Under the pieces are notes generated by a model, which saw nothing but the letters and a program-made list of their open reading frames with translations, made no database searches and was not told the DNA's origin. The position numbers were made by a program, and so were the translations under genes. Positions 3,001 to 23,536 of a DNA stretch of 64,000 bases are shown here, in pieces. This stretch comes from Scleroderma bovista (taxonomy: Eukaryota; Basidiomycota; Agaricomycetes; Boletales; Sclerodermataceae). The stretch covers positions 1 to 64,000 of the forward strand of contig JAYMGJ010000080.1 in NCBI GenBank assembly GCA_037178675.1, written 5' to 3'. Each line of letters begins with the position of its first letter. Positions within the stretch are counted from its first letter, which is position 1.

Positions 3001-4600
3001 TTTATCATAGTCTGTATCTGACCTTTCTGGTCACATCTCCGGCCAGTCCGGAACTCCATACCCATTTCCTGCTACTAGCTAGCTTGTTTGGCTTCGTGCC
3101 AACACTCCTGTCTGAGACAGCTTCATGCTGACTCACTCTTCCGACTGTGTCTCCAACCAGTCCGGAACTCCTGGTCCTGTACCAACCCTCTCAACTGAGA
3201 CAGTGTCATGCTGACTCACCTTTCCGACTGTGTTTCCGGCCAGTCCGGAACTCCTGACCCAATCTCCGGTTGCTATCTAGCTTGGAGGCTCTCTCCAGCT
3301 GTGTCAACCTTCTGCGACCCAACCGAGACAGCACTGTGCTGACTCACCAAAACTATGTCCTCTGTGCTAGCCTGCTTGTATCTGCTGACTACCTTTGTAC
3401 CAACTGTCCCATCCTTGTCCGGCCCTACTAGCGGACTTCCAGTCACTTGGCAGTACTTGCACCCCAACTCCGGCTCTCATCCGCACACCCAGAACCTCAA
3501 CCTTCGAACCTCTCTCTTGTTGCTGACACTTGCGGACTCCTGACCCATCTAGGCTCTCAGCCAACTGATCCTACCACTTCCGGATCAACTCCATGCTTCC
3601 TCCGGTCAACTGTACTACTTTGTACTCAAAACTCCGGACTGTTTCCACAGGAAAGCTGAGTACTCGCCCAGAAATCGTCGGACCACTTTCCCTCCTTGTC
3701 AGTAACCTCTAGGGTCACCCTAAGGCCACTCTCTGGCCACTGGTTCTTGTAGCTTGGACATTCCCTGTTCCCGACCTTCTGGTCACTCTGGCTTTACAGC
3801 CACCCGCATCTTGCTCTCTGAGCTTATTCTACTCAGCTGTGCTTTTAATCTGTGCTTCCCTCAGTTGCACTAATCTGTTTCCGGACCATTCCTGGTCTCT
3901 CCGGCCCTTGTGGTCAACTCCAGCCCAGCTCTGAACTTACTGGTCAACTCCTGGTCAGTTTTAGCATCTCTGGTTGCGACATCTGGCTCGCATCTGGACT
4001 TTGGGACATTGCATGTCTCTATGCACCATCTGACAGTCTGTTCTGACTCCTGGTCACCTCTAGTCCATCTCCAGACTCTCTGGTCAAATCCTGACCATCT
4101 CCTGCAGTTCCGCTTTTGTCTTGTCCAACTCCGGCGGACTTCCTGGTCACGTCCTGGTCAGCTCTAGCAGTCCTGCTCGCAAACTCCAGTTTGCACCTCC
4201 TCTCTGGACATTCCCTAAGTCATCTGACTTCCTGTCCAAACTCCTGGTGCTTCCTTCGAGACCCTCTGTCTCTCTGACATCTTTGCAAGTCCTGCTTTGC
4301 ATCTCCGGTTTTTATCCAAAACTCCGGACTTCTGGTATCACTTCCTGGGTCATCTGACCCACCTCCAGCAGCTCTGCTTTGTTGTCTGGTTTGCACCTCA
4401 AAAATCCGGACATCCTGTCCTCTGTCCTTGTCAACGCCTCTAGCAGTTCTGCTTGCAATCTCCGACTTGAAACTCTGGACTTTATTTGTCACCCTTGTAG
4501 TCATCTGACTCCCTCTCCTGACACCCTGCTTACCATCTCCGGCTTGAATCTCAAAATTCCGGACTTCCGTGTCATCTCCAGAGTCATCAGACTCTCTCTG
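1..4600. repeat. Degenerate array of TCCGGA/ACTCCGG-containing short repeats
   Basis: The first 4.6 kb has no credible gene. It is filled with variants of short words such as aactccggtca, gtccggagtt and tgtcaatactccgg. Up to about 1,380 the words run mainly as GGAGT/CCGGAGT; from there to about 4,600 they run mainly as the complement, ACTCCGG. The section 1,380-1,800 is the most regular, with units of about 28-30 bp built on ctaactccggtcactcctgtg. Open frames here are by-products of the repeat. It could be a decayed satellite or the subterminal region of a large transposon. I cannot name the family. Confidence 0.7.
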
Positions 4601-4789
4601 GGGACACCTAGCTAGATGGGAAGGCCAGCTGATATGCTTCCCCTTCAGTATGATCGGCCATAATGTTTGGCCTCCCAATATACACAGCAGGCCCTTAGAA
4701 CTATATCCCTTGTATAAATGTAGGGCCGGGCATCTGGTCTTCTCTAAAGTAGTGGTAAGCCAGGTGTGGCACGACACAATCAGCACTAC

Positions 4790-5055
4790 ATGGCATTGGC
4801 AGAACACACTGTTGGCAGAACAAGGCTGTCGGCAGAACACACTGTCGGCAGAACAAGGCTGTCGGCAGAACATGTTGTCGGCAGAACAAGGCTGTTGGCA
4901 GAACACGTTGTCGGCAGAACAACGCTGTTGGCAGAACAAGGCTGTTGGCAGAACACGTTGTTGGCAGAACAACGCTCTTGGCAGAACAACGCTGTTGGCA
5001 GAACACACTGTTGGCAGAACAAGGTTGTCGGCAGAACACGACTGTCAGCAGAATT
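4790..5055 (+). repeat. 17-bp tandem repeat, about 16 copies (YGGCAGAACA core)
   Basis: A clean tandem array with a 17-bp period. Each unit contains tgttggcagaaca or tgtcggcagaaca followed by a variable tetranucleotide (acac, aagg, acgt, aacg). Because 17 is not a multiple of 3, the array leaves all frames open and creates spurious long ORFs rich in Ala-Glu-Gln. The core resembles the CGGCACAACA words at 8.2-8.5 kb and 22.1-22.2 kb. I therefore read it as the left subterminal repeat of the large element to its right. That link is inference. Confidence 0.85.
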
Positions 5056-5065
5056 GTTTTTCGGG

Positions 5066-5145
5066 CAATGTCGGATTTGAACCGACGACAGCAGCGGCAC
5101 AACATGTCATCAGCAATCTACCATCGGCATAATAGAATTGCGGCA
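5066..5145 (-). other. tRNA-like sequence with B-box, probably a tRNA relic or SINE head
   Basis: On the minus strand a perfect T-arm-like hairpin (GTCGG, loop TTCAAAT, CCGAC) contains a consensus Pol III B-box (GGTTCAAATCC). It is followed by ATTGCCCG, which pairs 5 of 7 with a CCGCAAT located about 75 bases upstream. A TCTA/TAGA D-arm-like pair with GG in the loop is also visible. I cannot form a convincing anticodon stem, so this is not a confident functional tRNA. Confidence 0.3.
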
Positions 5146-5859
5146 TTACAAGAATGGCACAACATAAATACTGGTAATGGCTGTGCAGCCATCGCGCAGG
5201 TGCCGCAATACCTTGCCGAGAATCACAAACGTGCTGGAGTAATAGCCGTGTGGCCATCATGCTTGCATGTGCAGCAATATGGGAATGACCGTGCCGTGTG
5301 GCAGTGTCGGCACGGTTGTGGACACCGGCATTTGCCACTGACATACTGGCCAGTGGCAGCCAGGCTGGTGGCTGTGCGAATAAGTACCGCAATGATAACA
5401 TTAAATTAATGATGGCCGTACCACAATGACTGACATGCGGCATTGATCCCTTTCTCAAGCTGCGGCTGTGTTAATACATGCCACATTGATTGTTCCCTGA
5501 GAGACACACTCCAAAATAAGGCAAATCATAATGCCGATCCGAGATCCCTTATTATTGTGATGGGACAATGCACTGTGACAGCCAATCACAAGCAATAGAA
5601 ACGCGGCCATCATGCAATATGAAATGCAGCAGTGTGGTTCATTAGCTGAATTGTCAGGACAATGATTGGTCGGACTTGTGGCTGAATTATTAACCTATAT
5701 TTGATTTAGTCCACTTTGGTGTGCGACCACAATGCAAACATGTTGTGGTGTGAAATGCTTATATAATACGTTGAACATCCTCCAGGCCGCACGGCAATCG
5801 GACCCAGTTCTTCCTCTCCTCAACCACTGCTTTACCATTTCCACATCCTTACAGTCTAT

Positions 5860-6943
5860 ATGGCAACTTCAGAAGGTTCTCAGTTCGTCTCCGCCTCATC
5901 CGTTCAAGAGGACGTGTCAATGGCTACATCCCTCACTGCAGAAGAAGTTGTCGCCCAGGCCGCTGAAATAATTCAAGGCCGGATTGATGGCTTGAGAAGC
6001 ACACGGGAGAAGGGTGTATGGTCGGAAGCAGTGTCAACTATCTGGGCCCAGGTGGTGCGTGGCAAATTGATCTGCAATCAATCAACTCACTGATTAGGAT
6101 ATGATAGCGCCGGGTCGAGAATGTCCTGCAGGAGTTACCTGCAGGATTCATTATACCGACTATCATCGTTGCTGCCGACCAGTTTATGGAGGCGCCAGAG
6201 GTGATCCTGTCGACAGGGAAGTGGCCTCACTTCCCAGACATCGTTAACGCCACGGACCACGATATCCAGGACCATCCCTGGTTCCAACTAGGCAAGCCGC
6301 AGAAGAAGGTGGACAAGGGAAAGAGGAGAGCGGTAGAGCCGTCGGGGAACAATGCAGTGGCAGGACCATCGGGGGTAAAGGAGACAGAGGTGCAAGGCAG
6401 TCGTGGCCAAGTAGGTGAGCCCAGCGAAACTGAGGACTCATAAGCAGTGCCAGAAGGAAGCCGTGCCATCGAGGATGATGAGGTGCCTAGGGGCCGCAGT
6501 CGCAGTCGCAAGCTGAGGAAGCGTGCCCAATCCGTCGCAACGATCAGCAGTGACAGTGACAATGAAGAAGGCTCATCGCAACCACAGTTAAAGCGACCAA
6601 GGCCAAATGTTCGTGACATGCAGACACCAGACACAGGCTATGAGTGGGTGGATGACAAGGATCGCTGCATCAAGTGCGTACAGCGAGATCGACGGTGTGC
6701 AGCGAACCCAGGCCATGCTTGCTGGCAATGTTGCTGCAGCAAGATTGCATGCAGTATGATGACGGCAGTCAGAGCGAGGTCAAGGTTGCGTTCACAAGCA
6801 CCGAGGAAACCTGCACCGCGTCGGCGTTCACCATCTGCGCCCTCAATGCTCAACCAAGGAAGGTCACAGCGTGCAAAAAGCCAATGTCAGACCCCGGCAC
6901 CAGCAGCGGCCAATCCACCCAGGAAACCAAGTAAGTCGTTCAT
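5860..6943 (+). pseudogene. Companion protein A: Cys-rich zinc-cluster-like protein with in-frame stop
   Basis: The model is exon 1 at 5860-6054 and exon 2 from 6108. These join in phase 0 across a GTGCGT...TAG intron, with the ATG at 5860. Exon 2 reads through a helical segment, a basic/acidic low-complexity stretch and a cysteine cluster starting CIKCVQRDRRC and ending KIACS (6,675-6,760). That cluster resembles the CxxC-x6-C clusters of orphan proteins linked to agaric mobile elements. A TAA at 6441-6443 interrupts the frame, and the same frame resumes at once and stays open past the cluster. This looks like one nonsense mutation in a once-coding gene. The donor at 6931 does not join in frame to the next ORF. 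Function unknown; nucleic-acid binding is plausible from the cysteines and basic tail. Confidence 0.55.
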
Positions 6944-7017
6944 TATTTGAACAATTTAATATTATTTCTATCGATATTCCATCCAGTTTTTGATGGGGTA
7001 CTGATCAATACTCCAGC

Positions 7018-7825
7018 ATGGCTAGGGAGACATCGAGGATGGCAAGTCCATCGTCAACGGCCGCCGGCAGTGGCATGAACCCTCCCACAACACCGGGAGA
7101 CAGTACGAATATGTCAAATGTACAAGATCTCGAGGAGGAGGTTGTCCGTTTGAGGGAAAAGCAGGCCGAAACGGAACGAAAGGTGGACGAAGTGAATGCA
7201 AGATTGGCCGTCGCGCTCGGAGAAGTCGCCAGCTTACGGCAGGTGGTTGAAGCGATGCAGGAACAGCTGTTCCCAACACCATCCCATCTTCAACGTCCGG
7301 CATCGCGGCAGGCATTCGCACCGACACAGCCGGCATCTGACTCAACATGTCCCGAGGTCTCGCAGTGCGCTCACCCCAGTCCGCCAAGCCTGTTGGCACT
7401 AGCGCCTACCACAATGCTGGAAGAAATGGCATTGTCCAACAATCTGTCCCGACATGGCTCGAGCGAGCCGACCGGCACCCATGGTATGCAGGTTGCGCTG
7501 CGCAACAATGCCTCAAGTCTGGAGGTGGCAACTCCAGGCTTGGTCGATGAAAGGGGTGCCAGCAAGCCAACTGGTGATAGCTACGACTGGGCCCCACCAA
7601 AAGGTAAGTCTGTCAATTACCAAGCCATGTGCTACTGATCACAAGATTGTGTTGTTGACAGCGATTTGTGATGAAGTGGCCGCAACCATAGAGACCGGCA
7701 ATATTCTGGCAATCGAGGTCAGCCCACCGGAAGATGGAGATGTTGGGCTGGCATCCAATATGGAGATTGGGAGTTCCGATGCCGATGCCGGGCATGATGC
7801 CGGTGTGCAAATGGAAATGGACTAA
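7018..7825 (+). CDS. Companion coiled-coil protein, two exons, unknown function
   Basis: Exon 1 at 7018-7603 and exon 2 at 7662-7825 join through a GTAAGT...CAG intron and give 249 residues. Residues about 38-85 form a clear coiled coil (LEEEVVRLREKQAETERK then heptads to about MQEQL). The rest is Ser/Pro/Thr-rich, and the C-terminus is acidic and ends with QMEMD. It follows the cysteine-cluster ORF by 70 bp on the same strand and may once have been its 3' half, separated by a frameshift. I recognise no domain. It lies inside the repeat-bounded block with the KDZ transposase, so it is probably element cargo. Confidence 0.5.
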
Positions 7826-8009
7826 TTTTCTTTTATCATACCTACGTCTTTTGTACAATTTCTGCTTCCTATTCCATGTATACCATATACATCACATTGT
7901 AAAGTATATTTATGCATGTAGAGTTGTCCTTGTGAATCATTGACACAGCCTGAGAACTCTGTCAGAGACATGCCAGTAATGGTCTCAACCACAGCCATGA
8001 ATGCATTGC

Positions 8010-8161
8010 CAATATGTTGCCGGCACATCCCAAATTTACCTGTGGAGTAACTTTTCAACGTTACTGATATACATGAATACCAAGAGCAGGCTAGATATGT
8101 CCTACAGATGTAACTATAATTGCCATGTATGGCGGCATCAAGTATTGGAAGGAGCAACATA
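8010..8161 (+). repeat. Diverged direct duplicate, copy 1 (copy 2 at 8490-8612)
   Basis: This segment and 8490-8612 share an order of words: gccggca, a-rich, tttacct, a GTTAC-gatatacat block, caagag, tataattg, atggcggcat and aacata. They differ by point changes and gaps. Each copy is followed by an array of CGGCAC words, so the duplicated unit is probably this segment plus its array. Confidence 0.6.
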
Positions 8162-8214
8162 CTTTTAATCCACTGGCACAACACAATCAGCAGAACATAC
8201 AAGGGAGAACATAC

Positions 8215-8460
8215 ACTCGGCACTGCATCGGCACATACAATCGGCATACAATCGGCACAACCATCAGCAGCATTACATCCATGCCGCTGCAACAGTGATC
8301 AGCACTTGCATAACATTGGCACTTGCAAACCATTCGCACAAGACACTATCAGCACAGCAACATCGGCACAACATACCATCGGCACATCATACTATCGGCA
8401 CTACATACTATCGGCACATCATACTATCGGCACATCACACTTGTGACACAGCACACTATT
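8215..8460 (+). repeat. Array of CGGCACA words
   Basis: At least ten spaced copies of cggcaca or cggcact occur, alternating with cataCTATCGG-type spacers about 18-20 bp apart. A shorter array follows at 8,655-8,760. The same word marks 18,296-18,330 and 22,020-22,240. Regular clustered short words of this kind could be transposase-binding subterminal repeats; this is inference. Confidence 0.65.
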
Positions 8461-8489
8461 GGCACTATGTACATGATACTATCCCAATC

Positions 8490-8612
8490 TTTCGCCGGCA
8501 AATGCAAGATTTACCTTTGCAGTAATTCTTCGATGTTACCGATATACATAAATAGCAAGAGTATCTATAATTGCTGTAGATGGCGGCATTATGTGTTGAT
8601 TGAGGTAACATA
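8490..8612 (+). repeat. Diverged direct duplicate, copy 2
   Basis: Partner of 8010-8161, as described there; it starts at cgccggca and ends at gaggtaacata. No gene is visible between 7,826 and 8,877. Confidence 0.55.
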
Positions 8613-8877
8613 CTGTAATGAGCATAGCATTCCATTGGAACATGCATACGGTAGACAATCGGCACACACCCCAGCGGCAGGACATACATTTGTAATACCA
8701 TCAGCACTTGTATAACATCGGCACTTGCCGATACCTTTGGCACAACACACTATCAGCAAATCTTTCCAGTGGTGAGATAAATGAACTATATATGGAAACC
8801 ATTATTATATAATCATTCAATTGTGATTTCCATTCCACGTCAATTCCATCTTGTCAACTTGCATCTTTGCTACCGCT

Positions 8878-10418
8878 ATGCCACCTAAGTCTGTCAGATT
8901 TGATAGCGCAAGTCCGCAGAAATTGAGTGAGTAATTTCTCTCCTCTGAGCTGATCTGCATGACATCGTTATCAGCCATTCCTGCACTGCCAGTGTGGCAC
9001 CCGCCTCCATCCATTGTCGATGAACGCCTGCCATCAAGCATGGACTGGATGCCACCCTCTCCCCCACGCCACAGGATGCGCACACGTGAAACAAATGTGT
9101 CTGTGAGGAACAACGATGCAATGTCTGGGGACAGCAACAGACAAGCAACAGCGGCAAACAATCAGTTACCGGCCCCCTCGCAATCAGCTCCGATCAACCT
9201 CCTGTTGAAGGAATACCTATGTACACTGCAAACTGTTGGGTGGAGTGCACAACAGAGATGGTAGCGGTAGCTGGTTAAGAGCTGTTATATTATATAAGCG
9301 GACACTGTTTATATACAACAAATAGTGTGATGCGTGACTGTCGTGAGTGACATGTAACATCTACTCGGACTATTACTAAGTCTACACTAATATGGCTCGC
9401 AGTCTTGTGCGCACTTCGTTGACGGTTTACACCGGGTGCACGTGCGACTTCAACACCTCCCTGGCCCCTCAGCACATGAGATGTGCGCAGCAACCCCCAC
9501 GACTAGATCCCAGGCTTGGATGCCACCATCGCCTCCAATCGCTGCCAGTTCATCCAATGTGCCGTCTACCCTCACCATTCGGTCGCAGGCATCAATGCCA
9601 CCCCCGGCAGCAATGCCAGCTACCCCATCGGTTTGGCCATCATCCCAAGGCACCCAACCGCAAGCATGGATGCCACCGTCGCCATCCCCCACGATGGCCG
9701 CATGGATCCCGCCCTCTCCAGTGCACGTGCCACGTATTGGGACGTCATCCCCATCAATGCCGGCATCCTCAGTCCTGGCATCACCATCCAGCCCGGCATC
9801 ACCATCCAGCCCGGCATCGCCATCGCTCCCGGCATCGCTATCTAGCCCGGCATCAAGCCAGCGGATTCCCACCTCCCCAATGGAGGCAGAATCATCTCCT
9901 GAGGCTGTATCTGGATCGCATGCACGATTCCGGGAACACATGCATGCAGAGGATGGTAAGTCAGTATTACTGCAGGAATTATGTGTATTTAACAATCATC
10001 CAGTGGAATATTTTGAGATGGTGGACAGGATTAATGCATTGCATGAGCATTTGGATCCATTCCAGAGTGATGCGCTTTCATGTAAGTCTCTCTTGGGCTT
10101 GATCCATAGTATCAGTTGATCAGTTGTCATCTAGTGGCCTCTGCAAGGCAAGTTGCTACATCCGTCCCTCCTAGGAACTTGCCCGACCTACTCCCACTCG
10201 ATGCCGGCCTTGATCACCCTATGATCGCGGCCTACATTCATTACGCAAACACGTTGCTCGACACCGCCAGGTTGTGGAGATCGGAAATGTGCCGGAGAGC
10301 GATGTTGGCAAATGTGCGGGATATGTTGGCTAGGTCAGCCCGACTTGGCGAGAATGGTGACATAATTGAGTCCGATCACCCTGAGGATGTGGTAGTATTA
10401 GATCCCTCCAAGCTGTAG
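8878..10418 (+). pseudogene. Companion protein B: WMPPSP-repeat protein, split by a solo LTR
   Basis: Exon 1 (8878-8926, starting MPPKSVRFDS) splices to 8975 and reads on to 9233, where an LTR interrupts it. Reading resumes after 9455 and continues through exons ending at 9955, then 10004-10081 and 10135-10418 (GTAAGT...AG introns, phases consistent). Both sides of the LTR carry copies of W(M/I)PPSP, five in all, plus a Ser/Pro/Ala run. This supports one original gene. The C-terminal 130 residues are well-behaved, helical and charged (PDLLPLDAGLDHP... to DPSKL). No known domain. The LTR should terminate or reroute the transcript, so the copy is probably broken. Confidence 0.55.
9234..9455 (+). 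mobile_element. Solo LTR, copy 1 (222 bp, TGTTGG...TTCAACA)
   Basis: It begins TGTTGGGTGG and ends GACTTCAACA, the inverted terminal TG...CA form of retrotransposon LTRs. It contains a TATA-like tatattatata and a second ttatataca. A reverse-complement copy lies at 27,895-28,133 with only small differences. No gag or pol lies beside it, so it is a solo LTR. I see no target-site duplication (flanks caaac and cctcc). It interrupts companion gene B. Confidence 0.8.
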
Positions 10419-10498
10419 TTTTGTTACAGTAGTGCGGCAATAAAATCTTTCGGCACAAGACATGGCAGATTTGACAATAGAATTATTCTACAAGTATA

Positions 10499-12892
10499 TT
10501 ATTTGCGGTGTCTCTTTGGGCTGGGCGTAGGGACATCGGCATCGGGCCGCTTTGGCCGCCTTCTTTGCCGTTCCGGTTGACTAGGCCCGGCAACGGCATT
10601 GACATGTTGAGCCCTGGCAATCCGGCGTGTGCTGGCAGCCCGCTTCCCCTTGCCTCCAGAGTGTGTGGCATCATCATCCCCTGATCGACCACCCTCCATC
10701 CCATTTGTGTTGCCAATGGAATGCATAGTTAATTCACCAACTATCATTTGTCGGAATTGCTCAAATGGATATTGAAATAGGCAAACTTACATTCCACCGG
10801 CGCATCGGCTGTGTTCTTTTTAACCCGGGGCTTTGGCTTCATCGGTCCATTAGCATTGACGTTGCCGGGATCCATATGTGCTTTTTCTTATATGAGAATA
10901 CGTGCCATTTCCAAGTAATTGAGACCAATACCCACCTTGCTGTTTAGGTTCGGCCGGCTGCCGTGCCATCAGTGCCGCTGATGCTCTTCGTCAAGATGGT
11001 CCCACCGGCATAACAAAACCAAGCCCCACGCACCATTTTCCTTAGCATTATGTCCATCTGAGTCATCCTCTATATATAAACTTCATATTCTGACAACAAA
11101 AATATTCAAAGGAACTGACCAGGCTGTTCAATGGGCGTTGTATGGCTTGCTGACAGGGATGTTCCAAATGTAGGAGGATCAAATGCTTGGAATACGGATG
11201 GGGCGTACCATCATCCTGGTTTGACCGGCATTGGTTTTTGTTTGTTGCACTGGACTCCCTCTCCTCTGGGGCCTCTTCTTTTATGCATGTCAATGGTTGC
11301 ATAACATGGTTGAAAGATCCATACCAATTGTGCGCCGCCTCTTCCGACTGCTTGCGAGTTCCACATCTCGTGCCGCAGGTTCTTTGAACCAGTCAAAACA
11401 AGTTGATAAAAGTATTCAGAGCTAACCTTTCAGGGGCGGCTTTGCTGCACTTATCATTCCGGCCACTGAGTCCTCACAATCTGATACTGGATCTTGTAAT
11501 CCACCATCCATATCTCTCCATTTGTGAAATGTCAGTACATCTTCCGGATCTGTCACTTGCCTATCGCGCCAGAATTCCAGTACCTTTGTAACTTCCTGAT
11601 TTGTGAGCCGGGTCGGCTCTTTGAACTCCCAATGCCGCGGCAGGTACACAGATGAAATGTAGATACCGGTCTTTGCATGTATGGCAGCCCAAGGAACACT
11701 GGCACTTGGCTTGCCGCATGCCTTGCCTGCGGCAAGGGGTCAATTCTCCGTCTATTTACAAGGAAGAACTTACGATAATGCCATGTCACAAAGGTCCTCA
11801 TAACATCCTTTCTCTCCAATGCTTGCATATCGAGGATGATCGGAATCATTGGTGTGCCATCTTCCATTGTTGGTAAAACAGTTTGCGGCCTCTTCTGCCC
11901 TTTCTTCCGGCAGAGCGTCGGTCCGGCATCTTCATCGCTATCATCGTGTTCTTCCCCTCCTATGGCCTGCTGTGCATAGGCATCCCAGTGGTGCTTGATG
12001 TCATCCCAATCGGCAAAGGTCTTCCCTTGTCCCAATGCCGAATTAAAGTCATGCCTGTGAATGTGAGTATACAAATACCACAAGTGAGAAGTGACATACA
12101 TTCCCATCATGGGCTGACCATTCCGGCCCTTCCATGCCGCCATCACAACCACCCGCATCCCACACTGCCGCCACATTTCCTGCGCAAACTGTTTGACATA
12201 TTGTCGGCCTTTTGTCTCGGCCATTCTGTTTGCAGATGAATAATTGTCGAGATAACATGTCAAACTTACTCGGCCTGGACCTCTGCCGGCGGCTGCTCCT
12301 CGTTCCATTCATCAGCCTGCTTTGCCGCAGCATCCCTTTCCTCCTGGGTGAGCTTCCCCATGATGCATCCTACCGCCTTTTGGTAGCCTTTAATCATGCC
12401 TGTGCTTCCTTGGGCAATTCCGGCCCGTTCGAATTCGGCTTCGATTTCTTTTTTCTTCGACTTCATTACGACTGATCTGGCAGTCCACCTACGTCCATAC
12501 TTTACTAGGGCCTTTCGGGCACGGGCTCGGCTGTGGTTATACAACCAATTTTTAATTGCCTGATATCACTGATGCATCAGTAGTCCATGTGAAGTTATGG
12601 AAATGGGGCGCACTTTTTTTTTCTTCTCCCATTCGTGTCCTTTGAGTGTGCTATTGGCAGGGAGATTTTTGATTTTTGCCTTCATGGCATTCTTCATACC
12701 TTTCCTTTGGTTGCTGTCAGCTGCCTTCCAGTCTTCCAAGGCTTCCTCAAGGACCTCGACCTCATCATCCCGGAGTTTTGTTTTTACCACATTTTGTGGT
12801 GCCTCTGTGCCCGACGAGTCAGAAGAATGGTCTTGCTCATCTTCTGTATCAGGATTCTCCATAGATCTGCTGGATGAACGACTGCGGGCCAT
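10499..12892 (-). CDS. Companion protein C: multi-exon protein of a family seen in agaric genomes, function unknown
   Basis: Minus-strand gene starting with MARSRSSSRSMENPD. Exon 1 (12614-12892) joins an exon beginning AIKNWLYNHSR, then one beginning MAETKGRQYVKQFAQEMW. Next are HDFNSALGQGKTFADWDD, KACGKPSASVPWAAIHAK and a segment ending near 11,422 (FWRDRQVTDPEDVL). Further 3' exons, down to KRPDADVPTPSPKRHRK at 10,499, are likely but less certain. The joins keep frame with GT-AG introns. The layout is a charged N-terminus, a basic segment and then a globular core; I recall the core type from hypothetical proteins of mushrooms but can name no function. It is divergent from the KDZ transposase, with 424 bp between starts. 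Confidence 0.55.
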
Positions 12893-13316
12893 GCTGTATG
12901 TTGAGTAGACTTAGATACTTTTTTGAGTGGTGCTGTGCTAGAGAAGTCCCGGACACTTTGTTGAAGGATTCCCGAGCTATTGTTTCTCCCATGTCAATTA
13001 GTGTTCAATTCCTCCACGCCGACCTCTTTTGGAAAGTCCATTGGTGAGCTAGCTACTTCTGGGGCCGGCTATGTTGTTCGGCAGCTAACAAGCTATTTCC
13101 GGACTTTAACTTAGCATCTAATTCAGTAGCGGCCACCATATATGGGATTTTTGCATTGGTGCCTGATCTTCAAGTCCATATTACAAAAGCTAGATCCAAA
13201 TCGGCAGATCCAAAGATCCCTTTCCGATCACTGTCCATGCTGTTTCAATGAGGCTTCAGTGAGATACAATGTGGAAAGACTTTGTGCAGGGATTTCCTCA
13301 TCAGATACCACTCATG

Positions 13317-16300
13317 GCAAAGTCCAAGATACAACCTGCTGGTAGCTCTACTCCGGTGGTTCATGTAACATGGCAGGCATTCAAATCAAGGAGGGGATCT
13401 ATTGATAAGATGGTGAAGGCAACGCCCCGAAAGAAGGCCCGTCATGGAAAAGCTCCTTCAAATGACACTCCGACCCAGTCAGCATCTATAGGATTAGAAC
13501 AATCCCAACTGTTTCCAGATGATGGCCAGCCATACATTTCCATGGATGATCTTCCACCCCGAAAGAGAACAGGTGTGTCAAAGAATCAGGTGTGTGATTT
13601 ATTCCGATCCTGCACTTGCCATGTCCTCCTGAAGGCATAATAGGACAGTTACTTATTGGCATGGTTGCCATACAAGCAGAGGTACCTCCAGGTCCTTCTG
13701 GACATGGAGGCACCCCCTCACCCAAGGGTCTGCATGTTGTGTCAAGGAGATGGCACGTACAGATGCGCCGAATGCATCCACCGGCCCTTGCTCTGCAGTT
13801 CCTGTTGCAGAAAGGAACACAAGTTGCGGCCCTTCCACCGGGTGGACCAATGGAACGGTACATTCTTTGAGGAATCATCGTTACGACTGGTGAGTCATCA
13901 ATTCTACGTGGCATACAGCAACAACTCATTTAGAAGGCTGGGTTGGTGGTACACCTCGGCCATGGTGGGGATCCGTGTCCGAATGGCGGGATGGATGGTG
14001 AGGACATTGCTGGTGATGTTGAGGATGAATGGGAGGATATTCAGGACCAACCAAGACCACATCATCTTTCTGGAGGAACGGACAGGTCTTGCCTAACTGT
14101 AGTGCATACATCTGGGGTACATTTTTGCGATGTGAGGTATTGTAACTGTCCAGATGCAGGAGCTTCGCATTTGCAGTTGGTCAAAGCAGGACTCTTCCCG
14201 GCAACTACAAAGGAACCTAGGACTGTATTCACCTTCCAAGTATTGGATGACTTCATTATGGATAATGTGGAGTGCGGCACCTCTGCCATGAATTATTACA
14301 GCAAGCTTCGGCGAGTCACATCCAATGCATTTCCCGGCCTTGTACCGGTGAGTTCAAAGCATGATATTAAGGACCCGATGACACCACCAACACTGATCCA
14401 AGAACAGATACAGAGAGCTACTCAGGGTGTCGAGGATGTGGAGGCTGTTAAAGCTGTTGAAATGGCAAGGTTTTCATCCAGGATCTCCTGATCCCAAGAG
14501 GGGGGAATTGGTGCTGTTCTGTCCGGCATGCCCACAACCAGGAGTAAACATTCCATCCAGTGAAGATGTAGACCTCTCGGAGTAAGTAATGTTTTATTTT
14601 TACTTGTACTTATTGAGCAGCTGCATGATATAGGTGGAAATATTCTAGGACCATCGTGATGGATGGAAACTTCAAGGCCGAGCATATGCGGCCAAAGAAT
14701 TCAGCTAATGAAGTTTGGCTCATGGACGGAATGGGATTCATGGTTACAATGCCGGAATATAAGGATTATCTGGCCGGAACATTGAACCGGGTCGAGGTTT
14801 GTGATTGCACATGTTTACAATACGGTTCAGCATTGTAATGGAATTCACAGAAATCTGACTGTAGCAACCATCGAGCAGTAAACCAGGCAAATGCTAAAAG
14901 AAATCAGCTGGCATCTACTGGAATTGGCGGGTGTGCATGTGCGCGGCATGGATGCTTTGTACCCCATGCAATGGTTGACTTTCAGAAGGGAGAGCAGTAT
15001 GTGCCGACATGTTGCATGCATTCCACCCTAACAGGAAGATAGGCAGGTAAATATGGATTATGCTCTGGCACATGCCGTGCAACATGGGATGGATCCGCAA
15101 CAAAAAGTCATAACCTTTTATGACATCAATTGCCAATACAGCAAAAACCTAAAGCGCCGGCTAGAAGCAAACAATTTTATATCCTTACCACCTGGGCTAT
15201 GGATTCAACCTAGCATTGGGCTCTGGCATGTACATGGTCACAAGGCAGAATGTTTCACCCGATATGCTCCCAATTTCATTTCTGGTGTAGGCCGCGTCGA
15301 TGGTGAAATTATGGAGACTCTCTGGTCCTCTCTTAACATCATTTCGCCATCGGCCCGCGGAATGGCAACGCCGCATAGACAGGAGCTGCTTGATTTTCAA
15401 ATGAATGACAACAACTTCTTAAAGATGGTGCGGATGCGTGAGTGGTATCACAATATCTTGCAGATTTTGGGTGAAGTATGCCAACGACATATTGCACAGC
15501 CATCTCCCTGAAAAGAAAATTGAAGAATGCTCAAGAGGCACTGATGTCCGCGGAAGGAGCATTTGCGGAGCTTGATACAAGGGTTCCGGTCGAGTTGCAT
15601 GAGCTTTGGGCACAGCAAGAGAAATCGGCTTTGGAGAATAGGGCTACTGATCCAAAATCAATGGACATATTTGAGGTGCAGCTGGAAAAAGGTATTTACT
15701 TGCTTGGCTGATTTCAAACCAATTTGACGTATATGACAGCTCAAACAACGAAGTCGATCGAAATGGATATTATAAGTAATCAGGGACCGGATGGTCGTAT
15801 GCGTGGGGCAGCAACATGGATGGCAAGGGTATTGAAAGCCGAAGAATCACAAATTATTTTGGCCATAGATGTCCGCCACATTCATGCAAGGGCGACGGAA
15901 ACACAAAGGTTGTCTATTGCCCGCCGGCAGGACCGCCTGCAGATGCAAATTGATCGGCTCTGTGAATCAGCTTCCCAATTTCTAGGCGAAGATTGGAATG
16001 AGGACATCTCGGATAATCTCATTTCCACAACGGACATCGATGAAGGTGATGGTGAAGATGTATTTTCAGACACATTCCACCCACAAGATCCCAACTACTC
16101 GGATGCTGTGGTACTGCCCTTGCCGTCGTACCTGGGGATGCAGCAAGCCGATAGGTTGGGGCTTTTAACCATGGTGGATCAGGAGTTACGATTGAGGGAA
16201 GGTCAGGCCAACGATGCTCTACATGAACTAAGGGTTTCGCTGGCACACAAGGCAGTCATCTTCCGGACCGATGTCAGACATGCCGGGACATACAATATGA

Positions 16301-16832
16301 CTACGAGGGCCTGGGGGAAGGTGGGTAGTGCCGATGTGAAAGTGCAGCGGCATGCGGCAATATATCGTCGGTGCCGGAAACAAATGATAGCATTGAATGC
16401 AAGCGGCAACACATTGAACCGATACAAAATGTTGAGGAAAGAAGACCTAAAGATCAGTGCAACCATTGCCGACCCAAATGCAAGGGGTCATAGGGATGAC
16501 ACTTTGGCCTGGTTTTGGACAATGGATGTGCCGCGGGATACAGAGGTCAATGATTGGATGTCTGAATGTAAGATGATTGCTCCTCATGTTAACACCGGCT
16601 GACATGTATAGTTTACCGGGTGCATTGGTTGAGGGCGAAAGCATTGCGAGACAGGTGGGACGAAGAGGTAAAACTATTGACATGTGAAGCCACCTGGACA
16701 AGACAATTTCTTTCGTATAGGGAAACACTTTGGAGAGATCAAAAGGAGGAGGCTAATATGAGCGGAGAGATGGGGAGAGCATGCTATGCAGCAAAGCAAT
16801 GTCAAATGTATGGTAGACTTGGTTGTGTATGA
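13317..16832 (+). CDS. KDZ-family transposase with CxC2 zinc domain, ten exons, apparently intact
   Basis: Exons: 13317-13589, 13644-13889, 13934-14347, 14403-14581, 14634-14796, 14851-14996, 15043-15437, 15500-15691, 15740-16567, 16612-16832. All junctions are GT-AG and the frame sums to 1018 residues without a stop. The N-terminus is basic. Next comes the CxC2 cysteine cluster typical of KDZ proteins (VCMLCQGDGTYRCAEC, then LLCSSCCRKEH), then VVHLGHGGDPCP and FCPACPQPGVN. The catalytic core has VMDGNF (Asp at 14662), TFYDINCQY (Asp at 15122) and GRVDGEIMETLW (Glu at 15305 or 15314), the expected DDE-like set. The C-terminus has the family's RxGQANDAL and EFYRVHWLRAKA. KDZ proteins are usually near 1000 residues, so this is full length. 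It would move its own element by cutting DNA in the nucleus. Confidence 0.9.
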
Positions 16833-17254
16833 TTGGCATTGACCATCGGCATCAAATACCACTATATGGTATGCAAAGAGGACATATTTAAAATGGATCA
16901 TCGAGTGGCTGTTAGTGGAGAAAACAAGGTGCAACTGCAAGGTATTTATGGGGTGCATACCTTGGAATGAATGGATGATGGAATGGGAGGGTCATGAACA
17001 GTGGCACGTAGATTCGCTGGTAGCCGGAATGGAAAAGCCATGTACCAGCAGCAATTGAATGCCATGCATGCACACCCTTCGGCCAATATGTAAATATAAA
17101 TCTGCCAAGGGAAGAGGTGCAATCATGGGCCTACCGGCCGTGGTCCTCGTAGTTCCACGACTGCTGGCATTGATAACAATCAACTACCGCAGCTAGAAAC
17201 CATTGTGTGCCGGTGCAACAGCTAGCTATAACCTATGTGTCATAGTTCACTGCA

Positions 17255-18142
17255 TCAATCATGCTGTTGTGTAGCGGCGTGTCAGGATGCTTCCAGCAGC
17301 GTGTGCCGCAATGATGATGATGCCAAATTGTTGATTGTGCCGGAATGTTGACTGTGCCGGAATGATGAATGTGCCGAAAGGTTGATTGTGCCGGAGGGCT
17401 GACTCTGCCGCAATGTTGAGCCAGAATGGTGATTGTGCCGAAATGATGATTGTGCCGCAGTGTTGGCTCGGCCGCAATGTTGCCTGTGCCGGAGGGTTGA
17501 GTGTGCCGGAGTGTTGACTGGGCCAGACTAATGATGGTGCCGACGGAGTGTTGATTGTGCTGGCCTGTTGACTGCCGGGATGTGGATCCTGCCGGAGTGT
17601 TGACTGTGCCGCAAGGTTGATTGTGCCGGAGTATTGATTGTACTGGCCTGTCAACATTACGGCAGAGTCAACACTGCGGCACAAGCTGTCCAGGTCGAGC
17701 ACGCTCTGAGGTAGGACTGTGCTGGAATGATGACTGTGCCGGACTGGTAATGGTGCCGGAGTGTTGACTGGGCCAGACTAATGATGGCGCCGAAGGGTTG
17801 ATTGTGCCGACGGAGTGTTGATTGTGCCGGCCTGTTGACTGCCGGGATGTGGATCCTGCCGGAGTGTTGACTGTGCCGCAAGGTTGATTGTGCCGGAGTA
17901 TTGATTGTGCTGGCCTGTCAACATTACGGCAGAGTCAACACTGCGGCACAATCAACCCTCCGGCACAATCACCGTTCTGGCTCAACATTGTGGCAGAGTC
18001 AACCCTGTGGCACAATCAACCATTCAGCACATTCATCATTCCGGCACAGTCAACAGTTCGGCACAATCAACAATTCGGCACTATCATCATTGTGGCACAC
18101 ATTGCCGGAAGCATCCTGACACGCCACTACACAACAGCATGA
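17255..18142. repeat. Palindromic array of GTTGATTGTGCCG / CGGCACAATCAAC repeats with internal direct duplication
   Basis: The left arm (17255 to about 17460) consists of short units such as gttgattgtgccg and gatgattgtgccg. The right arm (17940-18142) has the same units in reverse complement. The arm tips match over dozens of bases, reading toward aggatgcttcc on one side and ggaagcatcc on the other. Inside, about 170-190 bp is directly repeated: 17513-17684 and 17753-17950 both run from gttgactgggccagac to ctgcggcacaa and are almost identical. It lies between the transposase and the dioxygenase gene. It could form a large cruciform; it may be a regulatory or excision site, or a nested MITE-like insertion. 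Confidence 0.8.
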
Positions 18143-18425
18143 TTGATGCTAGATTAGTTCACGCTGCCAGAATTATAATTGTGCCGAACTGTTGACTATG
18201 CCGGAATGATGAATGTGCCGCCCTGTTGAATGTTTACACTTGACCAAGCCGGATCATTGTGATCATGCCAGAATCGACTTTGGGCTCGCCGAGCGGCACT
18301 ACATCCCATCGGCACAACACACGTTCGGATAGTATCTACTACAAACTACTTCCAACAAATTTGGACTACATACCATCAGAATTACATTTTAGTACAACAA
18401 ACAATCATATCAGGAAGCTAATTAT

Positions 18426-19794
18426 TCAATGCTTCACCAGTGCATTGCGGACATTATCTGGCGTCACCCAATCAAGAGGCCGTGGCACCCTCAACCAATG
18501 GTGAATATTATCCCTCATATAATACGCCAAACAGCACCTCGCTCCGTCAACCTCGTTGACGCCGTGCCGAAAGAGCCGGCCGGAAAATGCAACGACAGTG
18601 CCGGGATTGTACAATACCTGAATCCCAAGACTGGGAATGTGCAGTGCACAATCATCATAATTACCGACACTGACTAGCATGTCATACCAATCTGCTCGAG
18701 AGTGTGGGTCCCTGTGGAGGGGGGTACTTCGATTGACAATTAGCGAGATATTGGTGAAGACAGTGGACCAATTTTCAAGTGCCGCCAGCATTCCGGGATC
18801 ATGGCCGGTCGCCCAGTCAGTCAAGTGTTGCATGGCAAGGTGGCCGGCATGGTATAGAGGCGGATGGATAATAGAAAGAACACCTGAAAGTATTGCCGAC
18901 GGAAGACATATATCCTTGCTCCATTGATAGCCCGTAGGACCGGCCAAAGCCTTGGACACCCCCGGAATGTCATTGGGGGTCTAGCAGAAGATCAAACAAG
19001 TGCATTGTCAAAAGAACAAGGTACTCACAGAATGGCCGAGCATGTGCCGTGCCGGAGAGAATTCCAAGCACCCGAAAATATCCACGTCATCCTTGAAATA
19101 CTGGTGTGTTGTACGCCATGATTGATTAGTAATACTCTCTTCCAGTGGATCTGCAAGTGAATCGATGGATGCCGCGATGTGCTCCTAGAAACAAAGGCCT
19201 CAACAGTGGACAATGAGAGTGGAATGATACCATACTTGGATGCAGGGAGCTAGAGCTCCGGGAAGATACCACAATGCAATTGTGTCACCTTCTCCCAGAA
19301 TAATGGTGGGCCGGGAAAGGGTCCCAGTCAAAGAGGAAGGATGTCTACGGAGGACCCTAATCTCCTGTTGCTCATTTGTGCCGGATTGCATTGGTCCGAG
19401 GCTTTCAGACAACCTAATCAAGTCAATGCCGCACGAAACTTCAGCGGATATCAAGCAAGGGATAATAGAACTATAAAAGAATTGGCTCACTCCGATTATG
19501 GTATGCCTGTGTGATGGTGGATACAATTTGGTTCATGGCTACAGTTGCGTCCACCGGCAGGGACAGAAGTGTTTCCGGGGTGGGGGAATTTAAGTCTGGG
19601 AATGCTTCATTCAGGAAGCGGCGCCGCATATATGATGCCATGATGTCAGACAAAGTATAGTTGGATGGCACGGCATTTGCACCGGCCATTGGATACAGGA
19701 CGACTTTTGACAATGTGGGGAGTAAAAATTTTAGTGGGGGATGTGCGGCATCCTGCGGACATCTGTTTGCAAACAGCAATGCAACACATTCCAT
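18426..19794 (-). CDS. TET/JBP-type 2-oxoglutarate/Fe(II) dioxygenase (KDZ-associated)
   Basis: Minus-strand exons 19491-19794, 19236-19438, 19029-19184 and 18426-18980 join with GT-AG introns and consistent phases. They give 405 residues from the ATG at 19794; a more upstream exon is possible. The core shows an HxD pair in TPLHRDPHSRADW (His codon 18714-18716, Asp 18708-18710). The distal His is in FRHGVNEVDG (18564-18566), and the 2-oxoglutarate Arg follows in GARCCLAYYMRD (18537-18539). The PSLG...YNPGTVVAFSGR segment between them matches the fungal TET/JBP pattern. Enzymes of this family oxidise 5-methylcytosine or thymine in DNA. Published work on basidiomycetes reports TET/JBP genes travelling with KDZ transposons, which fits the neighbour here. 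The DNA substrate is inferred, not shown. Confidence 0.82.
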
Positions 19795-19964
19795 TCTCGG
19801 CTAGATCCACTAAACAAGGCTGATCGGCGATTGGCCGGTGCGAAACAACACATGCCCGGTTGCACAATGTGGTAATTATGCATCAGGTGACATGTGGACC
19901 GTGAGAACATTGATTGCCTGAATGTTATAAGGCTTAGGGCGAATCGGCCATCACACCATCAATC

Positions 19965-20749
19965 ATGAATACCACATCCGAACTGCGCGAAACCTGCGAA
20001 CTGTCCATGGTATTGCAATACGTTGGAGTCCGCTTTCGACGGATGGTGCACGCGGTTCAACAACTGCCCGAGGGGATGCTGGCCACAGCTGAATGGTATG
20101 CAAACGTACAAACGGAAGTGGTAAGTGGAGAATGATTACATTTGATTAACACACTCATGAGCCCCCAGGCAAATTTAGAACGTGTGCTTGCCGCATGCCA
20201 GGCTATGGGTGCGAAGATGATATTGCCAATGATGGCGAGCAGGGTGCACAGAATGGTCGTACTAGAAGATCTGCCGCCGGCAAGACTGTATGCGGCAATG
20301 CGACAGTTGAACGTCTATCATGCGAAGGCCGCCGAAGTCCAGGTTCCAAGTACGCTTCAAGTGGCAAACTCGTGGTGGGTAAATGGCCACGGCCCATGTA
20401 CGGCAGGGTACAGCACGCGGCCGCTGCGGGACATGGTATCGGAGGCAGAGGCATTCTTTCCGCCGGACCTGGTATGCTCCCTTATTCGTGTTGTGTTAGA
20501 TACTAAAGCTTTTCCAAGGTTGCTGATAGAAAGGTCACCATTCTACTCACCGTTGGGTATACCTCCGACGAGGCCTTGTCAAATGCACGGTACTTCTGCG
20601 ACAATATGTTGCGGAGCTCGGACAATGCCCTCAAATATCATATAGAGGTGATGCAGCATTGTGCAAAAAGGATGGAGGACATTGAGATGCTAACCCGTGC
20701 ACCAAATGCATTGCGGCAGAAATGGGAGGAGTCTTTGGGTGGTAGGTAA
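19965..20749 (+). CDS. Companion protein F, three exons, unknown function
   Basis: Exons 19965-20120, 20169-20471 and 20534-20749 join in phase 0 and give 224 residues (MNTTSELRETCEL... to EESLGGR). The frame is uninterrupted. The composition is a mixed-helix globular protein with a central WWVNGHGPC and a C-terminal helix-rich section. No known domain is recognised. It is divergent from the dioxygenase, with 170 bp between starts, so the two may share a promoter. Position and intactness suggest element cargo that is still maintained. Confidence 0.6.
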
Positions 20750-21280
20750 ACATTGTATGAATACCTACATATATGTTCATCACAACAATAATTGGTTAAT
20801 CAAATATCGGCCAAAGCGACACATGTGATATAATGTTGCCGGCCAAAGTCTGAGCTGCGGCTGCAACACCCGGCCAGGTTAACAATGAGGCAGAAATCAC
20901 ACAGGGAACACATCGGCATGAATGGGAATAGCACATGTCTGGGTGGAGGTGTCGTCCGCATCTTCCAATACAATGGGTGCCGCAAGTTGATACCTTATGC
21001 CGGTCGTCAAGTTTGCGGCTGTGATGGCTGTAACCAATCATGGCCGGGCGGCAGTGGTGGCCTCCACTATGACAAGTACAGCCGCGGTATCACGGCAAAA
21101 GAAAGGTATGCCACAGCAATGCGGCCAGAGAACCAGGGATAGCCGCTGCTGCCGAAGGACTGTTAGCAGCATGGCGGCCAAAGCAGCAGGGTAGCCATGG
21201 AATTGCGGCCAAGGGGCTAGAAGTAGCAGAGTAGGCCCCGCCTCCTGCAGTTCCCAAGGCACGCCGCTAAAGTGGTGTCA
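20750..21280. other. Gene-free stretch inside the element
   Basis: Open frames are short and unsupported. The sequence is rich in GCGGC/GCCG words similar to the flanking arrays. I see no gene. Confidence 0.5.
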
Positions 21281-21284
21281 CACA

Positions 21285-21960
21285 ATGTGTCAAGCCCCAT
21301 ATGATGGTGTCCCATGATTACATAACAGCCCCAGGTGCCGTATCATCTATATGAGCAGGAGGCCCTGGATATAGTGTTCTCTATTCTATTATAGAGCCCA
21401 ACAAATAGGAGTGAGTAGGAGGGCTGCAGTGCCAGTGTCCCGTGCTTTGCATCAGGCCCTAAATATGGTTTGCCATTTCTGTTGGCAGGCCAGAGGAATA
21501 GTGTGTTTCGGGCTTTGATCAGGCTGTAACAACAGAGTCCCTTTCTTACCAAAGGGCCATGGAACTATTGTCCCTTGCATTCCAATGGGCTGTGCAGAGA
21601 CTGTACCTTTAAGGGGTGCTAGCCACAGGTGTGGTGTCCCATAACTCTGGGCAAGCCCTGGAGACAGCATCATTTATAGTCAGTGCGCCCAGCTCAGTCT
21701 GACAGGCAATGGCCATGGTATCCCATAGCATTGGGCAGGCCCTAGCAGAGGTGTTATCTAGCTATGCAGGCAAACCTTGCAAGTACATTTTAAAGTGACA
21801 AGCCATGAATGGGGTGTCCCAGAGGATTAAACAAGCCCTCAATGCGGGAACAACTATATAGTTGGGAAGGCATGTGGATAGGTGTCCCATTGAGTGCGTT
21901 GGGCCACAAAGTTGATCTCCCTGTATACCCATTAGGCCCTAGATACTATGTCCTCTATAT
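21285..21960 (+). repeat. Degenerate repeat of about 65-75 bp built on GTGTCCCAT...GGGC(A)AGGCCCT
   Basis: The phrase gtgtcccat (or tatcccat, tgtcccgt, tgtccctt) recurs, each time followed 15-25 bases later by ggcaggccct, gcaagccct, atcaggccct or a relative. Occurrences lie near 21309, 21437, 21570, 21630, 21718, 21810 and 21880. Units are strongly diverged. The origin and role are unknown; it could be the decayed right subterminal region of the large element. Confidence 0.55.
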
Positions 21961-22009
21961 AGATGTATCGCCGTGCATATAGTGTTAAGTAACTACCGTT
22001 AGGCCAAGA

Positions 22010-22245
22010 TCCGGCACGAGGAACCGTCGGCACTAAATTGATGCAGCAATAGATGCGGCCGACACATAACACCCAGCACCACATATCGTCGATCAGCAGC
22101 ACCACATATCAGTGGCACCACATATCAGCGGCACTGCATATCAGCGGCACAACATCTCATCGGCACATCATCTCGTTGAACATGCCGGAGTGTTGACTTT
22201 GCCGCACTGTTGACCATGCCGCAATGCTGATTGACCGGCTCACTA
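22010..22245 (+). repeat. Array of (C/T)GGCAC words, putative right subterminal repeat
   Basis: Words such as ccggcacg, gtcggcac, agtggcacc, agcggcactg, agcggcacaa and atcggcacat occur about every 18-20 bp. GTTGAC/GCCG units like those of the 17-kb palindrome follow (gttgactttgccgc). Together with the 4.8-kb array these frame the KDZ gene block. I could not find a clear long terminal inverted repeat by eye. Confidence 0.6.
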
Positions 22246-22904
22246 TGGTGTTATTGCTGCCATCAGATTTCACCACACTGCCTCCATTGCGTACTGGCTC
22301 ACTTATTCTATTGGTATGCTACTCCTCTGAGCCCGAGTATTTCCATGACGACACCCATTTGTCCAGCTTAAGACTTTCACCCTACCCCGCTGTCACGCAC
22401 CAAACGTGTTTGGTACTGTGGACATGGAGAAAGTTAGCCGATGAAACTAATGCGAAGAACGCACACCCAAGATCTGTTGAAAGATTGTCCCGACTTGAGG
22501 GATACAGACAGCCCTCGCTATCCATATCACGCAAAGTCATGACTATCCTTATGCGAAGGATGAATACAAGCTTGTCATAGCCATCTATCGCACAAGAATG
22601 ACTATCCTGGAGCAAGAGATGAATGCCATCGTCTGGCAGTCATCCCTCGCACAAGAACCGCCAAGAAGCAGAAGAATCCAAGGATTGGTGATCATTTCAG
22701 TATGAGAGAGGAATGCAACCTACTGCAGTCCAACTCCCATACCAGAACAACCAAAGAAGCAGAAGAAACGATAGAGAAACAAAGGAGAAAAGGAAGAATC
22801 ATTTTTAGCGCCCAAATGTCAAATTTAGGCGCCCAGTGCCGGCATTCCGATATTTTGAATAGCTCCGCCATTTTTGAAGCTATCAATCATGTGACTATAC
22901 CATA

Positions 22905-23366
22905 ATGGAGCCTAGACCGTGGTCTATCTGCCTGTCAAGTTCCGACGTAAATCCGTTCATTTCCCACGGAGATATTCCACCCGCAATCCAGACACCCACT
23001 TCATCACTCACTATGGAGTCCACATTTTCTCTGGAACGTTTCTCCGCTATTGCAGCAGACCTCAACTATGTCCTGCTCTTGGGACAGCCTCTCCCTGAGC
23101 TCCTGTGTACTGTCTGGTACATATCTTCCCAGCCTTCTCCCTCAGTCCCTCTCATTCTCGGTCAGCGCGTTCTCCTCGTCAGTCCTGCGTCGCGCACATA
23201 CTTTGGTCGTCTCAAGTCTATCGTTAGACTTGAAAATTCATACCTGGTCGTCTCTGTGTCTCCTGAGTCCTCTGCATATGGTCCTTTCATCCCAGAGTCC
23301 TGTCACATCCATCTCCCTCTATCATTCATCTCGCTTCCCTGGACACATCAAATCCGCTACTTGTGA
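22905..23366 (+). CDS. ORF of unknown function, 153 aa, possible retroelement remnant
   Basis: An uninterrupted ATG-started frame whose middle reads ERFSAIAADLNYVLLLGQPL and LILGQRVLLVSPASRTYFG. It is Ser- and Pro-rich and shows no recognised domain. It precedes an LTR-like region with a TATA box and polyadenylation signal. It may be part of a decayed retroelement, or chance coding. Confidence 0.25.
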   Translation: MEPRPWSICLSSSDVNPFISHGDIPPAIQTPTSSLTMESTFSLERFSAIAADLNYVLLLGQPLPELLCTVWYISSQPSPSVPLILGQRVLLVSPASRTYFGRLKSIVRLENSYLVVSVSPESSAYGPFIPESCHIHLPLSFISLPWTHQIRYL

Positions 23367-23536
23367 TTCTCTTCCCTGCTATCCCGCAACAAACACGAAT
23401 GAAACAGTGCTCTAGAACCCTTCTTAGAAGCCCTAATAGAGTACAGAACCTTCCCCTTACTGCTCAAGGGAAGACTGCACTTCGGGAGCACCAAATTTCG
23501 CATTTTTGCTCTACAGAAGCTCAATCCAAGGGATTT

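What the first reader, a model, noticed from the sequence alone, without database searches (positions are those of the whole stretch)
4790..22245. A repeat-bounded block pairs a KDZ transposase with a TET/JBP DNA oxygenase
Seen: a full-length KDZ transposase, a dioxygenase with HxD, distal His and Arg, four companion genes, and arrays of YGGCAC/YGGCAG words at both margins and inside. Known: fungal TET/JBP genes have been reported to spread with KDZ transposons. Inference: this may be one element of about 17 kb that carries its own DNA-methylation eraser, perhaps to escape silencing or to reset its binding sites.
Basis: partly seen in the sequence, partly recalled or inferred. Interest (0 to 1): 0.92.

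Follow-up and report, generated by a model that had tools for sequence, protein, structure and literature searches.

The report
Fungal transposon with DNA-demethylating enzyme
A fungal genome carries many copies of a large jumping DNA element that brings its own enzyme of the type that removes DNA methylation marks, plus tandem arrays of short CpG-containing words that differ between element families and might mark each family's own copies.

Summary
The block is real and is one transposon copy, with corrected limits. Homology to two other copies runs from 4597 to 22389, broken only by a 253-bp solo LTR. This copy lacks 774 bp on the left and 177 bp on the right; the repeat arrays are not its borders. 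Other copies start CACATAATGC and end GCATGGGCTC, with a 17-bp inverted repeat about 45 bp inside each end; 5 of 12 copies checked have perfect 7-bp target duplications, 7 have none. KDZ and TET travel together: 41 of 58 close and 48 of 67 distant TET loci have a listed KDZ exon within 10 kb, against about 5% by chance. TET-carrying Kyakuja (KDZ) transposons with 7-bp duplications were published in 2025, so the kind is known. Not found in print: two further genes shared across subfamilies; CpG transitions between copies 39-fold above other C/G sites; and CpG-centred array words that differ between subfamilies in five of six segments sampled. This resembles the Arabidopsis VANDAL/VANC anti-silencing layout. 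Array CpGs decay like the rest, so protection is not shown; self-targeted demethylation remains a hypothesis.

The parts
4597..22389 (+). Remnant of one TET-carrying KDZ transposon, both termini missing
   Evidence: Homology to copies C150 and C188 starts and stops here; 774 left and 177 right terminal bases absent from the window
13263..16832 (+). KDZ transposase gene with CxC2 cysteine cluster; spliced, exon limits approximate
   Evidence: PF18803 and PF18758; exons open in C150 and C188
18426..19800 (-). TET/JBP dioxygenase gene; catalytic exon 18426-18980
   Evidence: PF12851; CcTET match; upstream exons matched in C560 and C17
11553..12910 (-). Companion gene 1, unknown family, exon limits approximate
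   Evidence: Matches beside KDZ in other subfamilies, 36-50% over stretches of 90 aa or more; Scleroderma and Pisolithus relatives
19938..20749 (+). Small companion gene, fastest-evolving of the exons tested
   Evidence: 27-38% identical matches at distant-subfamily loci; dN 0.63-0.78
6444..7638 (+). Companion ORF pair, function unknown
   Evidence: Open in C150 and C188 (92-94%); no match in C560 and C17 pieces
9460..10119 (+). Companion ORF, function unknown
   Evidence: Open in C150 and C188 (95%); no match in C560 and C17 pieces
4796..5053 (.). Tandem array, 17-bp unit with YGGCAG
   Evidence: Tandem Repeats Finder
8345..8465 (.). Tandem array, 16-bp unit with CGGCAC
   Evidence: Tandem Repeats Finder
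17302..18233 (.). Central arrays, 17-bp unit TGTGCCGNAATGTTGAN in both orientations, between the KDZ and TET 3' ends
   Evidence: word enrichment
22092..22223 (.). Tandem arrays, 16- and 17-bp units
   Evidence: Tandem Repeats Finder
9203..9455 (+). Solo LTR inserted in the element, target duplication CCTCC; not part of it
   Evidence: Empty site in C150; LTR family genome-wide

Best explanation
The window holds an end-less copy of a multi-copy KDZ (Kyakuja-like) DNA transposon, about 18.6-20 kb in the complete copies that hold both genes, in an unnamed fungus whose nearest named protein relatives are Scleroderma and Pisolithus. SHOWN: one element carries a KDZ transposase, a TET/JBP dioxygenase and two further genes found across subfamilies; complete copies have defined ends, and 5 of 12 have 7-bp target duplications. 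SHOWN: CpG transitions are the commonest change between copies, the mark expected of cytosine methylation. INFERRED: the transposase moves the element; TET oxidises 5mC on element DNA and so loosens silencing of its promoters or ends; the CpG-centred arrays are binding sites for an element-encoded protein (transposase or a companion).
For: Pfam domains; homology limits; ends and 7-bp duplications in 5 of 12 copies; linkage 41/58 and 48/67; shared companion genes; between-subfamily dN 0.09-0.78 with dS saturated or above 1.7; CcTET similarity; CpG transitions 279/5002 against 29/20449 at other C/G sites and 73/1908 against 19/11055 in the KDZ region.
Against: 7 of 12 two-ended copies lack a target duplication and C150 lacks the left outer end. 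Demethylation is untested. The CpG-decay mark on the copies gives no sign that TET protects them, and an LTR family without a known TET shows a lower, not higher, CpG excess (10-fold).
Confidence: 0.8

Rival explanations
1. The arrays are ordinary transposase-binding repeats used to bring the ends together for cutting, as with the CpG-bearing subterminal motifs of plant En/Spm (recalled). TET keeps those sites unmethylated, or is passive cargo.
For: Arrays also lie near both ends; DNA transposons often have such repeats (recalled).
Against: The densest arrays lie centrally, between the KDZ and TET genes, and the words differ between subfamilies while the KDZ core is the best conserved exon tested.
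Confidence: 0.45
2. Arrays are docking sites through which an element-encoded adaptor (small gene or companion 1) addresses TET to the element's own copies, as VANC proteins address anti-silencing in Arabidopsis.
For: Subfamily-specific CpG-centred words in 5 of 6 segments, mostly outside genes; TGTGCCG pairs: 99 of 100 listed hits nearest to a window-family marker; the small gene evolves fastest; VANC targets are tandem repeats of short motifs that differ between families (PMC5735166, PMC10398659, passages).
Against: Array CpGs decay as elsewhere (54/974); one segment (C707) has no CpG word on top and C17 is barely above the shuffle maximum; no binding data; Kojima speculates that action is not target-specific.
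Confidence: 0.2
3. The TET gene is a passenger that serves the host or nothing; it spreads because the transposon does.
For: Some copies carry inactivating stops.
Against: Between distant subfamilies TET dN is 0.26-0.29 with dS saturated, and the gene stays linked while gene order changes.
Confidence: 0.15
4. The block is a chance neighbourhood of nested unrelated elements.
For: The window is rich in nested repeats: solo LTR, a C17-like arm at 1590-4597, another repeat from 22390.
Against: The same genes recur together in tens of loci and in three copies with both ends and a target duplication.
Confidence: 0.03

Closest known systems
TET+ Kyakuja DNA transposons of Agaricomycetes (Kojima 2025, PMC12730594; parts 1-5 of 7 of the text read)
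   Same: KDZ transposase plus TET related to CcTET; 7-bp target duplications; 5' end CA
   Different: Right end here is ..TC, not ..TG; a 17-bp inner inverted repeat is present where Kojima reports no TIRs; companion genes and subfamily-specific arrays are not described in the parts read
CcTET of Coprinopsis cinerea (7vpn, 7w5p, 8jkk)
   Same: Only solved relatives found by sequence; HxD, distal His and Arg, and Asp at the place of Asp337 (by eye)
   Different: Ser at the place of Gly331; activity of this copy untested
Arabidopsis VANDAL/VANC anti-silencing (PMC5735166, PMC10398659; passages)
   Same: Tandem arrays of a short family-specific motif in noncoding parts of a DNA transposon that carries a silencing antagonist
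   Different: Unrelated transposon and proteins; eraser is a TET oxygenase; binding and targeting not shown here

Membership tests
TET+ KDZ DNA transposon | KDZ transposase and TET/JBP gene inside one bounded element | tested here: met
   C342, C727, C216: both genes between two ends with 7-bp duplications
Kyakuja (Kojima 2025) | 7-bp target duplication | tested here: met
   5 of 12 copies with both outer ends; the other 7 have none
Kyakuja (Kojima 2025) | 5'-CA..TG-3' termini | tested here: not met
   Left CA, right ..GGGCTC
Kyakuja (Kojima 2025) | No terminal inverted repeats | tested here: inconclusive
   Outermost 6 bases are not inverted copies, but ATGCACCTG is shared inverted and a perfect 17-bp inverted repeat lies about 45 bp inside
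Kyakuja (Kojima 2025) | Transposase placed with Kyakuja, apart from Zisupton and Dileera, in a tree | not tested
   The Pfam KDZ model covers all three; no tree was built, so I file it as TET+ KDZ, Kyakuja-like
AG-type TET dioxygenase | HxD, distal His, Arg, Asp337, Gly or Ser at 331 | tested here: met
   Alignment to CcTET, read by eye
AG-type TET dioxygenase | Oxidises 5mC | not testable with these tools
   Biochemistry needed
VANC-like targeted anti-silencing (works-like only) | Family-specific tandem motif arrays in noncoding parts | tested here: met
   5 of 6 segments with different CpG-centred top words; 38 of 43 window words outside gene spans; genome-wide hits
VANC-like targeted anti-silencing (works-like only) | Element-encoded protein binds the motif and lowers methylation there | tested here: inconclusive
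   Binding not testable; the indirect test, lower CpG decay in arrays, was negative (54/974 against 44/1120, 81/1144 and 95/1620)

The most novel reading that the evidence does not exclude
Each TET-bearing KDZ subfamily carries its own CpG-centred docking arrays, read by a fast-evolving element-encoded adaptor (best candidate the small gene, with the highest dN of the exons tested). The adaptor brings the element's own TET enzyme to its own copies: a self-addressed DNA demethylation system in fungi, convergent with plant VANC.
Probability: 0.2. Interest if true: 0.85.

Novelty: new variant of a known kind. Interest (0 to 1): 0.58.

Why it matters
Why transposons carry TET genes, and whether the enzyme is aimed at the carrier's own copies or acts on the whole genome, is open. 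A genome with many related TET-bearing subfamilies and different arrays makes this directly testable: express one cassette and ask whether only the matching arrays lose 5mC. The CpG-decay mark is also sequence evidence for CpG-directed C-to-T decay of transposons in a genome whose nearest named relatives are Scleroderma and Pisolithus; [quoted passage not shown]

Tried and rejected
Inverted repeats 9233-9457/27893-28134 as terminal repeats of an 18.9-kb element: rejected, they are copies of an LTR.

The 17-bp repeat CAATCGGCCGTGCTACA as the true end: rejected, flanks are shared about 45 bp further out. C150 stops exactly there on the left; unexplained.

Array CpGs protected from decay: not supported. 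TCG-biased hypermutation as in rusts: not supported, rates are 0.049-0.059 for all four 5' bases.

Selection within the close family from N/S counts: discarded, because the copies were chosen by protein similarity.

One search is void (loci not oriented alike; redone). One search used an array piece instead of the terminus by mistake, but located arrays.

Folds of companion 1 (pLDDT 52.6) and of a small-gene relative (49.9) were poor; Foldseek for companion 1 gave nothing at E<=0.001; Pfam gave nothing above cut-off for the companions.

Not done for lack of letters: complete elements of further subfamilies. C560 and C17 were read as 16 and 15 kb with unknown element ends, C145 and C707 as 2.6 kb each. 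TSDs were checked in 13 pairs picked from the first 100 of 191 inner-repeat places (C150 being the thirteenth, without a left outer end).

Tallies use coordinates transcribed by hand. TET rows aligned over less than 150 aa were left out. For the TGTGCCG pair only the first 100 of 571 hits were listed.
Full report
WHAT IS THERE. The window is the first 64 kb of contig C80 of a 51.8-Mb, 850-contig genome held as G000. The nearest named relatives of the TET exon are from Scleroderma citrinum (82%) and Pisolithus tinctorius (65%). Pfam confirms CxC2, KDZ and Tet_JBP. Among solved structures the TET exon matches only CcTET entries.

LIMITS. Copies C150 and C188 align with the window from 4597; C150 reaches 22389 (C188's contig ends before that). 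The one insertion in the window copy is a 253-bp solo LTR at 9203-9455 with target duplication CCTCC and the empty site in C150; the central array region also differs in length. At the left junction all 39 other scored matches start at 4592-4597 and none crosses it; 1590-4597 is 94% identical to C17 DNA on the KDZ side of a distant-subfamily locus. From about 22387 another repeat begins, with 40 other listed matches starting within 8 bases. The 774 left and 177 right terminal bases of other copies are nowhere in the window.

TRUE ENDS. The inner repeat CAATCGGCCGTGCTACA has 191 matches with up to two mismatches; the reversed control has 1. Sequence is shared 41-47 bp beyond it, to CACATAATGC on the left and GCATGGGCTC on the right. 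Of 12 copies with both outer ends, 5 have perfect 7-bp duplications (C342 GTTTCCG and C727 GGCAGGT, read by eye; C216 GAGGGAC, C19 AGCTTAA, C1 ACAAAGT). Seven have none (C120, C270; C24, C556, C572, C131, C76). Chance would give 0.0007 (12 x 4^-7). C342, C727 and C216 hold both full TET and KDZ hits; C19 has a KDZ fragment, C1 TET pieces and no listed KDZ. Missing duplications could reflect recombination between copies or misassembly; I could not tell.

LINKAGE. Of 58 close (89% or more, 150 aa or more) TET loci, 41 have a listed KDZ exon within 10 kb, all 41 convergent. Of 67 distant ones (53-66%), 48 do: 34 on the same strand with KDZ upstream, 13 convergent, 1 with KDZ downstream. The lists were capped at 150 scored candidates, so these are lower bounds. 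Two more genes recur: companion 1 (36-50% between subfamilies over stretches of 90 aa or more) and the small gene (27-38%, list cut). From coordinates, C145 and C17 read KDZ> small< TET>; the window family KDZ> TET< small>; C560 KDZ> small< TET<. The set stays together while its order changes. dN against C560 and C17 rises from the KDZ core (0.13, 0.09) through CxC2 (0.24, C560 only), TET (0.26, 0.29), the KDZ C-terminus (0.35, 0.32) and companion 1 (0.45, C560 only) to the small gene (0.78, 0.63); dS is 1.7-2.8 or not computable.

CpG DECAY. In 20 copies of the TET region, leaving out stretches under 85% local identity, CpG sites show transitions in 279 of 5002 cells and other C/G sites in 29 of 20449, a 39-fold excess. 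Over the same alignment there are 287 CpG transitions and 215 other changes. In the KDZ region 9 rows give 73/1908 against 19/11055. The 5' base has no effect. Stops in the TET matches listed, counted by eye, are 34 TGA, 5 TAG and 2 TAA, as CGA-to-TGA decay predicts. A control LTR (29 copies, the window's own copy left out) shows 83/928 against 18/2085, 10-fold. The copies bear the mark expected of CpG methylation, the TET substrate, but nothing here shows that TET protects them. In the arrays 54/974 CpG cells are changed, no fewer than in the catalytic exon (44/1120).

ARRAYS. Top 7-mer by z in each segment, observed/expected and, in brackets, the highest count of any 7-mer in shuffles: window family TGTGCCG 43/2.9 (27); C560 ACCGGTA 48/0.9 (16); C17 ATGCCGG 18/1.5 (17); window 1382-4596 ACTCCGG 15/0.3 (13); C145 ACCGCGG 16/0.3 (8); C707 CAGCCCA 21/0.8 (14), without CpG. 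Five of six are CpG-centred and different; C17 is marginal. Privacy is not complete: ATGCCGG also occurs 22 times in the window family, and CTCCGGA 25 times in C17 and 6 in C560. Genome-wide, TGTGCCG-N9-11-TGTGCCG has 571 hits (control 0); of the 100 listed, 99 have a window-family marker as the nearest one within 20 kb. TACCGGTATGACAGT has 94 hits (control 0): 66 nearest to a distant-type TET locus, 26 near none, 2 nearest to a window-family element (C24) but about 7 kb outside its end. A CCGCGG pair pattern hits three places (C167, C202, C526), each between TET and the small gene of a distant-type locus, and not in C145 itself. In the window, 38 of 43 TGTGCCG words lie outside gene spans. 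The central array region is about 1.0 kb here and about 2.2 kb in C150.

HOW IT PROBABLY WORKS. The transposase moves the element; TET oxidises 5mC on element DNA; the arrays bind an element protein. The last step has two readings: end handling by the transposase, or addressing of TET to own copies. The second follows VANDAL/VANC, where rapidly diverging tandem arrays of a short motif decide which copies are freed from silencing (PMC5735166, PMC10398659; passages). Kojima (PMC12730594) speculates on non-targeted action. The data do not decide, but they make targeting testable.

NOVELTY. TET+ KDZ elements are known (PMC12730594; the 2014 PNAS paper by Iyer and colleagues is not held). Literature searches and the word search showed no report of subfamily-specific CpG arrays in such elements; only listings and the passages named were seen and most subscription papers are missing, so this is a weak negative.

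Noticed in passing
27893-28183: Second copy of the LTR, on the minus strand, 84% identical to the solo LTR at 9203-9455.
   Followed up: partly
96-1381: A 1.28-kb repeat also present twice in C17 and once in C560 (89-93%).
   Followed up: no
1382-4597: Repeat 94% identical to C17 DNA beside a distant KDZ, with its own CpG arrays (ACTCCGG); may be the arm of another subfamily fused here.
   Followed up: partly
G000 C131:68936-82317 and C1:98981-107510: Two-ended elements of 13 and 8.5 kb with TET and small-gene matches but no listed KDZ exon; C1 has a target duplication: possible non-autonomous derivatives.
   Followed up: no
G000 C150 left end: The copy stops exactly at the inner inverted repeat on one side but has the outer end on the other.
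   Followed up: no
22387-23432: Start of another high-copy repeat adjoining the element, 94% identical to C560 DNA.
   Followed up: partly
29728-30750, minus strand: A 340-aa ORF that looks like a SET/MYND-type protein by eye; probably host.
   Followed up: no
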